Assembly: GCF_004339465.1 (NCBI RefSeq)
Contig: NZ_SMFY01000002.1
Span: 930,001 to 994,000 of the forward strand
Direction: 5' to 3'
DNA from: Ancylobacter aquaticus
Lineage (GTDB): Bacteria > Pseudomonadota > Alphaproteobacteria > Rhizobiales > Xanthobacteraceae
Length of the DNA: 64,000 bases
The stretch's first letter is position 1, and every line of letters starts with the position of its first letter. A program made the position numbers and the translations under genes. Positions 34,813 through 37,517 of this stretch are shown piece after piece. The notes under the pieces are model-generated. The model searched no databases. It was not told where the DNA came from and saw only the letters and a program-made list of their open reading frames with translations.

Positions 34813-36027
34813 GTGGATGATGCACTCAAGACCAAGCTCGGCATCTTGGCCGACGCCGCCAAATACGACGCCTCCTGCGCTTCCTCCGGCGCTGGCGGGC
34901 GCGCGGCGAAGAAGGACGGCATCGGCTCGACGACCGGAATGGGCATCTGCCATTCCTACACGCCGGACGGGCGCTGCGTGTCGCTGCTGAAAATCCTGCT
35001 GACCAATTACTGCCTGTTCGATTGTGCCTACTGCATCAACCGGCGCTCCTCGAACGTTCAAAGGGCGCGCTTTTCGGTCGATGAGGTGGTGGCGATCACG
35101 CTGGGCTTCTACAAGCGCAATTATATCGAGGGCCTGTTCCTCTCCTCCGGCATCATCCGTTCCCCGGACTACACGATGGAGCAGATGATGCTCGTGGCGC
35201 GCGCGCTGCGGCAGGATCACGGCTTCGCCGGCTATATCCACCTCAAGGCCATTCCAGAGGCCAGCCCCTGGCTGGTGGAGCAGGCGGGGCTGTGGGCGGA
35301 CCGGCTGTCGGTGAATGTGGAACTCGCCTCCGACATCAGCCTGAAGGAGCTGGCGCCGGAGAAGCACGCTCCCGGCATCAAGGCGACCATGGGCCAGTTG
35401 AAGGAGCGCATTGTCGAGGCGCGCGAGGAAAAGCGCCGCTTCGCCCCCGCCGGCCAGAGCACGCAGATGATCGTCGGCGCCGATGCTACGACCGACGCGG
35501 CGGTGCTGGAGACCAGCGCCACGCTGTATGGCGGCTATGGCCTCAAGCGCGTCTACTACTCCGCTTTCAGCCCCATTCCCGAGGCGAGCCGCGTCCTTCC
35601 CGTGAAGCCTGCGCCGCTGCGGCGGGAGAACCGGCTCTATCAGGCCGACTGGCTGCTGCGCTTCTACGGCTTCTCGGTGGAGGAGATCGCCGCCGGCGGC
35701 GAGGGCGGCATGCTCGATCTCGACATCGACCCCAAGCTCGCCTGGGCGCTGAAGCACCGCGAGCGTTTTCCGGTTGATGTGAACAGCGCCGATCGCGAGT
35801 TGCTGCTGCGGGTGCCCGGCCTCGGCGCGCGAGCGGTCGACAAGCTTCTGCGGGCGCGGCGGCAGACCCGGCTGACGCTGGACGACATCGCCCGCCTCAG
35901 CACCGGGGTGAAACGCGCGCGGCCCTTTCTCATCACCGCCGACCATCACCCGCTCAAGCTCACCGACCGCAGCGACCTGCGCGAGCGCCTCGCCCCGCCG
36001 GCGCGGCAGCTGGAGCTGTTCGCGTGA
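34813..36027 (+). CDS. Putative DNA modification/repair radical SAM protein with C-terminal HhH
   Basis: The 404-residue product starts with GTG 34813. The radical SAM cluster motif is CLFDCAYC (Cys67, Cys71, Cys74), in the family opening TGMGICHSYTPDGRCVSLLK. The middle has LFLSSGIIRSPDYTMEQM and NVELASDISLKELAPEKHA. A helix-hairpin-helix region near 320-360 (NSADRELLLRVPGLGARAVD) suggests DNA contact. This matches the recognised family annotated as DNA modification/repair radical SAM, whose reaction is not known. It is co-transcribed with the DUF4130-UdgX gene (GTGA overlap), its regular partner. Confidence 0.9.
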   Translation: MDDALKTKLGILADAAKYDASCASSGAGGRAAKKDGIGSTTGMGICHSYTPDGRCVSLLKILLTNYCLFDCAYCINRRSSNVQRARFSVDEVVAITLGFYKRNYIEGLFLSSGIIRSPDYTMEQMMLVARALRQDHGFAGYIHLKAIPEASPWLVEQAGLWADRLSVNVELASDISLKELAPEKHAPGIKATMGQLKERIVEAREEKRRFAPAGQSTQMIVGADATTDAAVLETSATLYGGYGLKRVYYSAFSPIPEASRVLPVKPAPLRRENRLYQADWLLRFYGFSVEEIAAGGEGGMLDLDIDPKLAWALKHRERFPVDVNSADRELLLRVPGLGARAVDKLLRARRQTRLTLDDIARLSTGVKRARPFLITADHHPLKLTDRSDLRERLAPPARQLELFA

Positions 36028-37517
36028 GCGCGCCGGCCCCGCGAGACGCGGGCACGCCGCGCCTGGTCGAACTGGACTACGGCGCCGACCGTGCCGGCTT
36101 CCGCCGCGCGGTGCGCGACGCCGTGGCCTCCCGGCTGCCGCCGGAACGGATGATCTGGCGCATGCGGGCTCCGGGGCCGGCATCCACCCTGCGCGAGGGC
36201 AAGACGGACCTGTTCGACACGCCACCGCTGGACGAGCCTCCTGCGCAAGAGGCAGGAGAACCGCCTCCCCTGTCTCTGCCGCGCGCCGTCGCCGGGCTGG
36301 TCGATCCGGTGCTGTGCCACGCAGATCCCGAGCGCTTCGCCCGGCTCTATGCGCTGATCTGGCGGGTTCTCCATGGTGAGCGCCAGTTGGCCGACAACCC
36401 GGCCGACCCGCTGGTGCATCGGCTCGGGCTAATGGCGAAGGCTGTGCGCCGCGACATTCACAAGATGCACGCCTTCGTGCGCTTCAAGGCGCTGGGCACG
36501 GAGAACGGCCGGGAGCGTTTCGTCGCCTGGTTCGAGCCCGACCACTTCATCGTCGAGGCAGTGGCGCCGTTTTTTCGCAAGCGATTCCCCGCCATGGACT
36601 GGGCGATCCTTACCCCTGTCGGCACGGTGGGGTGGAACGGGGAGCATCTCGCCTTCGGCCCGCCGGCCGGCCGCCCGCATCTTCCCGAGGGCGACGGCTT
36701 CGAGGAAGGCTGGCTCGCCTATTACGCCAGCGCCTTCAACCCCGCCCGCATCAACCCGGTCATGATGCGCGCGGAGATGCCGAAAAAATACTGGCCGAAC
36801 CTGCCGGAGGCGCGGCTCATCCCGGCGCTGCTGGAGGGCGCGCCGGCGCGGGTGGCGGACATGCTGGCCCGCGAGGCGAGCGCGCCGCGCAAGCGCGATC
36901 CCGTCCGCGCGGTGGCGGCGATGGCGCATCAGGCCCCCGCCAGCCTCACTGAGCTCAACGCGCTGATCTTGGCCACGCCCGCCTTCGTTTCCGGCGGCAC
37001 CCGTGCCGTGCTGGGGGAAGGCCCGCTCGGTGCCCGCCTTGCCCTCGTGGGCGAGCAACCGGGCGACCAGGAGGATGTGGAGGGCCGCCCCTTCGTCGGC
37101 CCGGCGGGGCAACTGCTGATGAAAGCGATGGCCGAGGCCGGGCTGGCGCGCGAGGCGGTCTACCTCACCAATGCCGTCAAGCATTTCAAGTTCGTGCCGC
37201 GCGGCAAGCGGCGCCTGCACCAGAAGCCGACCGGCGGCGAGGTGAAGCATTATCGCTGGTGGCTGCAGGCGGAACTGGACTTCGTGCAGCCACGCCTCGT
37301 CGTCGCGCTCGGCGGCACGGCGGCATTGGCGCTGAGCGGCGAGACGCTGGCGGTCACGCACGCGCGCGGCCCCCGCCGGCTGGGGACGCATGACGGCCTC
37401 ATAACCTTCCACCCCTCCTATCTGCTACGCCTTCCCGACGAGACCGCCCGGCGCGAGGCCTATGCCACGCTTGTGGCCGACCTGGCGGCGGCGAAGGCGC
37501 TGGCGCAGGCGGCCTGA
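36024..37517 (+). CDS. udgX: DUF4130 - UdgX fusion, uracil-DNA-binding protein
   Basis: The 497-residue protein starts at a GTG overlapping the radical SAM stop. Residues 1-250 are the DUF4130 domain (LYALIWRVLHGERQLADN, HKMHAFVRFK, WAILTPVGTVGWNG). Residues 300-497 are a family 4-like uracil-DNA glycosylase domain with GEQPGDQEDVEGRPFVGPAG and HPSYLLR (His463). The loop KRRLH (395-399) matches the KRRIH loop of mycobacterial UdgX, whose His forms a covalent bond to the uracil site in DNA; His399 is the equivalent. With the radical SAM protein it probably handles damaged or modified bases. Confidence 0.92.
   Translation: MSAPAPRDAGTPRLVELDYGADRAGFRRAVRDAVASRLPPERMIWRMRAPGPASTLREGKTDLFDTPPLDEPPAQEAGEPPPLSLPRAVAGLVDPVLCHADPERFARLYALIWRVLHGERQLADNPADPLVHRLGLMAKAVRRDIHKMHAFVRFKALGTENGRERFVAWFEPDHFIVEAVAPFFRKRFPAMDWAILTPVGTVGWNGEHLAFGPPAGRPHLPEGDGFEEGWLAYYASAFNPARINPVMMRAEMPKKYWPNLPEARLIPALLEGAPARVADMLAREASAPRKRDPVRAVAAMAHQAPASLTELNALILATPAFVSGGTRAVLGEGPLGARLALVGEQPGDQEDVEGRPFVGPAGQLLMKAMAEAGLAREAVYLTNAVKHFKFVPRGKRRLHQKPTGGEVKHYRWWLQAELDFVQPRLVVALGGTAALALSGETLAVTHARGPRRLGTHDGLITFHPSYLLRLPDETARREAYATLVADLAAAKALAQAA

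What the first reader, a model, noticed from the sequence alone, without database searches (positions are those of the whole stretch)
34813..37517. Radical SAM/HhH protein with a DUF4130-UdgX fusion, inserted between carA and carB
The pair overlaps by 4 bp and has a radical SAM cluster motif, a helix-hairpin-helix, a domain of unknown activity (DUF4130) and UdgX with its crosslinking-type KRRLH loop. UdgX is known to bind uracil in DNA covalently, but the radical SAM and DUF4130 reactions are unknown. Together they look like a recognition, capture and processing set for a DNA base lesion or modification. The place between carA and carB (pyrimidine supply) may tie it to nucleotide stress.
Basis: partly seen in the sequence, partly recalled or inferred. 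Interest (0 to 1): 0.78.

Follow-up and report, generated by a model that had tools for sequence, protein, structure and literature searches.

The report
SOS-switched radical and uracil-capture pair
Between two pyrimidine-synthesis genes this bacterium carries two overlapping genes with a match to the DNA-damage (LexA) switch site in front of them; their products, a radical-SAM protein and a UdgX-type fusion that lacks the usual iron-sulfur-binding cysteines, are predicted to process damaged DNA bases together during the SOS response, and the radical chemistry is still unknown.

Summary
In detail: a helix-hairpin-helix radical SAM gene (34813-36027) overlaps by 4 bp a DUF4130-UdgX fusion (36024-37517), inserted between carA and carB. 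The trio is already named in public family models, and SOS control of UDG/COG4277 operons is in print. The carA-carB place means little: one same-genus genome has an empty 198-bp site there, another holds other genes. The pair has its own LexA-type box (34781-34795). Such boxes also precede recA, lexA and ssb in this genome, and the radical SAM gene in 78 of 89 related loci (0.5 expected from shuffles). In 7 of 80 loci the cassette sits between an imuB-like gene and dnaE2. In 249 Pseudomonadota genomes radical SAM always comes with DUF4130 (39 of 39), while UdgX is optional (29 of 39). Newer points: six cysteines of the radical SAM protein are invariant (104 of 104), three more than the SAM cluster needs; and the window's UdgX falls in one clade that lacks the [4Fe-4S] ligand cysteines yet keeps the cross-linking residues. 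Most likely: an SOS-induced lesion-processing pair (radical SAM plus DUF4130) with a tethered UdgX that would cap uracil-derived abasic sites. The reaction is untested.

The parts
33506..34711 (+). carA, carbamoyl-phosphate synthase small subunit (left flank)
   Evidence: TIGR01368 447.7 bits, cut-off 307.35
34724..34750 (+). strong hairpin just after the carA stop
   Evidence: RNA fold (34712-34765 folds at -29.7 kcal/mol); no T run, termination not tested
34781..34795 (+). LexA-type (SOS) box GAACATAAAGTGAAC, ending 17 bp before the radical SAM start codon
   Evidence: same box type before recA, lexA, ssb in this genome
34813..36027 (+). helix-hairpin-helix radical SAM protein (rSAM_link_UDG)
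   Evidence: TIGR03916 542.7 bits; model pLDDT 85.0
34876..34977 (+). N-terminal stretch with the extra invariant cysteines C22, C46, C55 (candidate second-cluster ligands)
   Evidence: C in 104 of 104 sequences each; cluster itself not tested
35011..35034 (+). CX3CX2C of the radical SAM cluster (C67, C71, C74)
   Evidence: C in 104 of 104 sequences each
35773..35865 (+). helix-hairpin-helix (residues 321-351)
   Evidence: PF12836 E 2.4e-5, under gathering score
36024..37517 (+). DUF4130-UdgX fusion protein
   Evidence: model pLDDT 91.3
36075..36812 (+). TIGR03915/DUF4130 part (residues 18-263), HKMHAFVRF motif from residue 146
   Evidence: 195.2 bits; motif position
36816..37490 (+). UdgX part (residues 265-489), without the three cysteines that match the iron-sulfur ligands
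   Evidence: 272.6 bits
37203..37220 (+). cross-linking R-loop GKRRLH (residues 394-399, His399)
   Evidence: H399 invariant in 85 of 85
37601..37755 (+). carB leader, 95% identical in the empty site of G084; holds a hairpin followed by five T at 37690-37717
37756..41076 (+). carB, carbamoyl-phosphate synthase large subunit (right flank)
   Evidence: NF003671 1712 bits (scanned from 37696)

Best explanation
These are two overlapping genes with a LexA-type box in front of them, coding for a helix-hairpin-helix radical SAM protein and a DUF4130-UdgX fusion that would likely work together on damaged bases in DNA during SOS-induced lesion bypass. Shown here: the box, the gene pairing, the invariant cysteines, the cross-linking motifs, the missing iron-sulfur ligands of UdgX, and the place between imuB-like and dnaE2 genes in one clade. 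Inferred: LexA represses the pair; the radical SAM protein, with DUF4130 as its constant partner, makes a SAM-derived radical at a damaged base that the helix-hairpin-helix and DUF4130 parts hold, and repairs or converts it. The tethered UdgX would excise uracil at the same gaps and keep the abasic site covalently capped through His399 until bypass or repair. UdgX is an add-on: lineages without it keep radical SAM plus DUF4130, mostly with a LexA-type box of their own clade.
For: Own box at 34781-34795; a GAACN7GAAC or GTTCN7GTTC box in 78 of 89 loci upstream of the radical SAM gene, 0.52 expected from shuffles (earlier count 67 + 10 of 88). Same box before recA, lexA and ssb in this genome. 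Six of eight gamma/beta loci without UdgX have the E. coli-type box CTGTN8ACAG instead, and both alpha loci without UdgX have GAACN7GAAC. In 7 of 80 loci an ImuB-like gene lies upstream of the radical SAM gene and dnaE2 follows UdgX, all seven with the box. Radical SAM with DUF4130 in 39 of 39 genomes of 249; UdgX in 29 of those 39. Cross-linking residues E344, Q345, D348, N383, K386, R397, H399, H463, R469 invariant in 85 of 85. In print: SOS control of COG1573-COG4277 operons (PMC8565304, passages).
Against: No experiment on this family was found in the searches made. A box is not proof of LexA binding: the pattern occurs 121 times in this genome against 52 for the reversed control, and of 13 chosen sites 8 stood before no gene that I could name as a repair gene. 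11 of 89 loci have no such box; L206, L112, L113 and L114 have no exact box of the types tested. The seven mutasome loci are one clade, so one event. UdgX occurs without radical SAM in 9 of 249 genomes, so the two can work apart. DUF4130 has no fold match here because the fold searches of the fusion filled with UdgX. C22 and C46 lie in stretches with pLDDT under 50.
Confidence: 0.5

Rival explanations
1. A mutasome helper rather than a repair enzyme: the set would clean up or mark what error-prone DnaE2 synthesis leaves (misincorporated dUMP or ribonucleotides), with UdgX as main actor.
For: imuB-like/dnaE2 neighbours, also beside UdgX without radical SAM in L217 and L221. PMC8565304 suggests that SOS UDGs address ribonucleotide misincorporation by error-prone polymerases (passage).
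Against: UdgX is missing in 10 of 39 genomes with radical SAM plus DUF4130; most loci are not next to dnaE2.
Confidence: 0.22
2. A DNA base modification system (not repair): radical SAM and DUF4130 install a modified base that UdgX-type domains read.
For: The family name itself says putative DNA modification/repair; the three extra cysteines would fit an auxiliary cluster as in sulfur-inserting enzymes (structure match to lipoyl synthase; the chemistry is recalled).
Against: LexA-type boxes; no match to defence models; few phage records (10 of 50,697).
Confidence: 0.1
3. A spore photoproduct lyase-like light-independent reversal of UV dimers, UdgX removing uracil from deaminated dimers.
For: [quoted passage not shown]
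Against: No spore photoproduct lyase model among NCBIfam hits up to E 10 or Pfam hits up to E 1; structure rows lead to HydE and lipoyl synthase; the pair also occurs in two human-fecal contigs (L113, L114), where UV is an unlikely cause.
Confidence: 0.1
4. One reading: the pair works with carA-carB.
For: Its place in this window and in L004, L008 and G022; in seven Rhizobiaceae-type loci greA, and in six of them carB, is also near.
Against: Empty and differently filled carA-carB sites in the same genus; own box; in the Rhizobiaceae-type loci the cassette is on the opposite strand.
Confidence: 0.04

Closest known systems
TIGR03916 / TIGR03915 / TIGR03914 trio (rSAM_link_UDG, SAM_7_link_chp, UDG_fam_dom); COG4277-COG1573 operon of SOS papers
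   Same: All three models match over their cut-offs; LexA-type control is reported for COG1573-COG4277 operons (PMC8565304 passages). That COG4277 is this radical SAM protein is recalled.
   Different: UdgX part without the iron-sulfur ligand cysteines; place between carA and carB.
Mycobacterium smegmatis UdgX
   Different: Fused to DUF4130; lacks the three cysteines that M. smegmatis UdgX has at the aligned places.
Spore photoproduct lyase (SplB)
   Same: Radical SAM protein under SOS control in other bacteria (PMC8565304 passage).
   Different: No family-model match; extra invariant cysteines; helix-hairpin-helix.
HydE and lipoyl synthase type radical SAM enzymes
   Different: 10-18% identity; DNA context; helix-hairpin-helix; a shared fold shows no function.
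imuA-imuB-dnaE2 mutasome
   Same: LexA-type control, and in one clade the same locus.
   Different: Other enzymes; in the window the pair stands apart from it.

Membership tests
TIGR03916 radical SAM family | Score over the curated cut-off | tested here: met
   542.7 against 343.5 bits
TIGR03916 radical SAM family | CX3CX2C cluster motif | tested here: met
   C67, C71, C74; 104 of 104 sequences
TIGR03916 radical SAM family | Iron-sulfur cluster and SAM cleavage | not testable with these tools
   Needs purified protein
Auxiliary-cluster radical SAM enzymes (lipoyl synthase type) | Further conserved cysteines outside CX3CX2C | tested here: met
   C22, C46, C55 in 104 of 104
Auxiliary-cluster radical SAM enzymes (lipoyl synthase type) | A second cluster bound by them | not testable with these tools
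   C22 and C46 lie in stretches with pLDDT under 50
Spore photoproduct lyase | Match to a spore photoproduct lyase family model | tested here: not met
   None among NCBIfam rows up to E 10 or Pfam rows up to E 1
Spore photoproduct lyase | Same structure | tested here: inconclusive
   Not among the 50 rows of either fold search; absence from a capped list excludes nothing
UdgX | Motifs GEQPG and HPS(S/A/Y)LLR-type, and the KRR(I/L)H R-loop with the cross-linking histidine | tested here: met
   GEQPGD 343, GKRRLH 394-399, HPSYLLR 463; TIGR03914 272.6 bits over cut-off
UdgX | [4Fe-4S] cluster ligand cysteines (UdgX was described as a 4Fe-4S protein) | tested here: not met
   All three cysteines absent in the window and 24 of 85 rows in all, present in 61; M. 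smegmatis UdgX has them. Hence filed as a cluster-less variant, not a standard UdgX
UdgX | Covalent adduct with uracil-derived abasic DNA | not testable with these tools
   Needs assay
LexA/SOS regulon | Alphaproteobacterial LexA-type box in the promoter region | tested here: met
   34781-34795; 78 of 89 loci
LexA/SOS regulon | LexA binding and damage induction | not testable with these tools
   Needs experiment
carAB pyrimidine operon | Conserved place with carA-carB | tested here: not met
   Empty or other cargo in the same genus; 2 of 80 related loci show both flanks

The most novel reading that the evidence does not exclude
Radical SAM plus DUF4130 is a separate class of light-independent radical DNA-repair enzyme with two iron-sulfur clusters, a core SOS function from gut to soil bacteria; in this clade it carries the first natural iron-sulfur-free cross-linking uracil glycosylase, and the radical partner repairs the lesion or even releases the protein-DNA cross-link that UdgX makes.
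Probability: 0.22. Interest if true: 0.88.

Novelty: new variant of a known kind. Interest (0 to 1): 0.58.

Why it matters
The family is common (39 of 249 sampled Pseudomonadota genomes over the cut-off) and its reaction is unknown. The SOS-type box, the mutasome neighbourhood and the constant pairing with DUF4130 say under which stress to look and which two proteins to purify together. A UdgX without its iron-sulfur ligands is a natural test of what that cluster does and, if it still cross-links, might be a simpler reagent for capturing uracil in DNA. If the radical SAM protein repairs DNA it would join spore photoproduct lyase as a rare radical repair enzyme (the latter recalled).

Tried and rejected
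carAB functional link: set aside on the empty and variable slot. Phage origin: 10 of 50,697 phage records match the radical SAM protein: two are Acinetobacter phage MD-2021a records, of which the one opened is bacterial by its flanks (glyS, glyQ, aroE), eight are Bacteriophage sp. from fecal samples, of which the two opened are UNVERIFIED clones. One scan of IMG/VR kept 2 loci, not looked into. Defence: no PADLOC match. DUF4130 fold: the AlphaFold model of the fusion has pLDDT 91.3, but the 50 rows of each fold search were the UdgX domain, so DUF4130 was not tested by fold; its profile found only two non-significant PDB chains (best E 0.062, ribosomal, taken as chance) and in Pfam only itself and weak rows. 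Spore photoproduct lyase was absent from the 50 rows of the radical SAM fold searches, which excludes nothing. Rfam at 33000-42000: two rows far under their gathering scores. Sigma-70 scan: none; 5 terminator-like sites, 2.8 expected. The gene behind the box in L266 looked like imuA by eye but had no family match and is not counted. The short palindrome TCTCAN5TGAGA also marks unrelated places, such as one beside an mraZ-like gene, so I rely on the long form. In print: searches for DUF4130 (one paper), UdgX, UdgX with radical SAM, the TIGR names, the protein names, SOS terms, COG4277, UdgX with imuB and dnaE2. None of the listings or passages seen describes a cluster-less UdgX; the Caulobacter 2008 paper was not tried, and the Verrucomicrobia 2016, UdgX 2015 and Bradyrhizobium 2017 papers are not held, so prior print is possible.
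Full report
What is there. Two overlapping genes lie at 34813-36027 and 36024-37517 on the + strand, between carA (33506-34711) and carB (37756-41076). The first product passes TIGR03916 rSAM_link_UDG, the second TIGR03915 (DUF4130) and TIGR03914 (UdgX). Among the nearest named relatives are Ancylobacter proteins (92% identity for the radical SAM protein), so the window is of that kind of Xanthobacteraceae.

Already known. [quoted passage not shown] A Bacteroidetes LexA paper lists a two-gene COG1573-COG4277 operon in the SOS network and cites the same for Verrucomicrobia and Alphaproteobacteria (PMC8565304, passages; that COG4277 is this radical SAM protein is recalled). 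Neither the trio nor its SOS link is new as such.

The place between carA and carB. I looked up carA in ten genomes of the same family and took the stretches beside it. One same-genus genome (G084) has 198 bp between the carA and carB matches and no cassette; another (G062) has 2105 bp with other genes; G022 has the cassette there, as do L004 and L008. In four of the ten (G082, G013, G027, G011) no carB match fell within the stretch taken. BLAST of the empty site against the window's flanks gives a 168-column block, 95% identical, from window 37601 into carB, with a hairpin followed by five T at 37690-37717. So the cassette lies between carA's stop and carB's own leader, and a strong hairpin follows carA (34724-34750). 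Of the 80 loci, only L004 and L008 show both carA and carB around the cassette in the stretch held.

An SOS box of its own. Between carA and the radical SAM gene lies GAACATAAAGTGAAC (34781-34795), the reverse complement of the alphaproteobacterial operator type GTTCN7GTTC (published box seen in passages of PMC8565304 and PMC9578287). Of 90 loci with the radical SAM gene on the + strand (the window's own two copies left out), 89 had at least 150 bp upstream (L068 did not): 78 of 89 hold the box within 300 bp; shuffles give 0.52 on average, 4 at most. Spacer 7 gives 68 and 10 loci for the two orientations, the other spacers from 3 to 12 give 0 to 2. A first count with 330 bp gave 67 and 10 of 88. 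The loci are related, so they are not independent trials. In the own genome the pattern occurs 121 times against 52 for the reversed control, so a box alone is weak. I took 13 sites chosen by eye for the box letters: recA, lexA and ssb follow three of them, a DNA polymerase III alpha gene and a YifB-family gene two more, and eight had no gene that I could name as a repair gene.

The operator changes with the clade. Of ten loci with stand-alone DUF4130 and no UdgX (L206-L215), six have E. coli-type CTGTN8ACAG (L207, L209-L213), L208 a near match by eye, L206 none, and L214 and L215 GAACN7GAAC; L112, L113 and L114 have no exact box of the types tested. Of the 11 loci among the 89 that lack the alphaproteobacterial box, eight (L032, L037, L047, L053, L054, L064, L072, L078; Xanthomonas, Stenotrophomonas and kin) carry GTCTCAN5TGAGAC, two of them with one end base changed (sequences printed), about 23 bp before the gene in the six genomes where one search shows it. 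L027, L039 and L073 have neither. In two of these genomes the full form occurs only 2 and 3 times, with 0 in the reversed control: before this radical SAM gene and a DEAD-box helicase in G344, and before uvrA, a PA0069-family radical SAM gene and the same kind of helicase in G345 (the helicase pieces match TIGR03817 under its cut-off). Similar helicase ORFs follow it in G346 and G349 (by eye). The regulator is unknown.

Mutasome neighbourhood. Clustering of flank ORFs of 90 loci (80 plus L206-L215) found a DnaE2-type gene shared by seven loci: L036, L044, L059, L065, L070, L075, L077. In all seven it follows UdgX within about 150 bp and an ImuB-like gene lies upstream of the radical SAM gene, 0.1 to 1 kb away. 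The three polymerases tested (L036, L065, L075) pass NF004225 error-prone DNA polymerase; the three ImuB-like proteins tested (L065, L070, L075) match Pfam IMS, none an NCBIfam model at E 1e-8. All seven have the LexA-type box directly before the radical SAM gene. They are Erythrobacteraceae and other Sphingomonadales, so probably one event. L061 has dnaE2 and imuB matches about 3.4 kb away; L217 and L221, which have UdgX without radical SAM, also adjoin imuB-dnaE2.

Core and add-on. In one draw of 249 Pseudomonadota genomes, over the curated cut-offs: radical SAM 39, DUF4130 41, UdgX 38. Radical SAM comes with DUF4130 in 39 of 39; DUF4130 without it in G295 and G312; radical SAM without UdgX in 10; UdgX without radical SAM in 9. 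In 37 of 39 genomes the two matches are under 720 bp apart; G324 and G336 have about 3 kb. Kinship is not removed, so the Fisher values are only a guide. Radical SAM plus DUF4130 is the unit; UdgX is the optional third.

Cluster-less UdgX. In alignment A1 (85 sequences, the window included) the three cysteines that align with cysteines of M. smegmatis UdgX are all present in 61 rows and all absent in 24, none mixed; in the 24 the third is Tyr. In the 120 closest fusion relatives no cysteine column exists in the UdgX part. A tree of 90 UdgX rows puts the 24 on one side of a branch (100/99), one change; neighbour L103 and five further rows from outside A1 have the cysteines, so loss is the likelier direction. 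E344, Q345, D348, F357, N383, K386, R397, H399, H463 and R469, which match residues studied in M. smegmatis UdgX (abstracts of PMC10776899 and PMC10359453), are invariant in 85 of 85, D351 in at least 90%. UdgX was described as a 4Fe-4S protein (PMC10359453, passage). Whether the cluster-less form cross-links is untested.

Mechanism. Shown: pairing, boxes, mutasome neighbourhood in one clade, motifs. Inferred: LexA control; radical processing of a damaged base with DUF4130 as partner; capping of uracil-derived abasic sites by UdgX at the same gaps. Unknown: the lesion. The pair in human-fecal contigs speaks against a UV-only substrate.

Verdict. A sound observation of a known but functionally unsolved gene set; the nucleotide-supply reading falls, the damage reading gains. 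The cluster-less UdgX clade, the extra invariant cysteines, the core/add-on split and the second operator are the parts for which I saw no print in the searches named under Tried and rejected.

Noticed in passing
L032, L037, L047, L053, L054, L064, L072, L078 upstream of the radical SAM gene; L222-L226, L290, L302: A second operator, GTCTCAN5TGAGAC, rare in Xanthomonas and Stenotrophomonas genomes, stands before this gene, uvrA, a DEAD-box helicase and a PA0069-family radical SAM gene: a small damage-type regulon with an unknown regulator.
   Followed up: partly
window 63333-63604; paralogue in L260: An 84-aa CxC/CxxC protein (63333-63587, - strand) starts 2 bp from a box GAACATAGGAAGAAC (63590-63604); a near-identical small protein elsewhere in the genome has the same layout. 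No family over cut-off. Possibly a small SOS protein.
   Followed up: partly
L034, L042, L046, L056, L060, L063, L080: In seven Rhizobiaceae-type loci the cassette lies next to greA, and in six of them also carB, on the opposite strand: a second insertion near carB in a different UdgX branch. Unexplained.
   Followed up: no
window 37601-37755: carB has a conserved leader with a hairpin followed by five T (37690-37717), also in the empty site of G084; no Rfam family. Possibly an attenuator.
   Followed up: partly
L218 (G169): UdgX follows a short remnant of DUF4130 (50 profile positions, one TGA, under the cut-off) and no radical SAM gene is found: the UdgX part seems to outlive its partners.
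   Followed up: partly
L112 (CAKLQH020000003.1): The record named Acinetobacter phage MD-2021a carries glyS, glyQ and aroE beside the radical SAM gene and looks like bacterial chromosome.
   Followed up: partly
plasmid records: The radical SAM gene is on 158 of 72,556 plasmid records, among them Phaeobacter, Paracoccus and Azospirillum plasmids; 142 are typed non-mobilizable.
   Followed up: no
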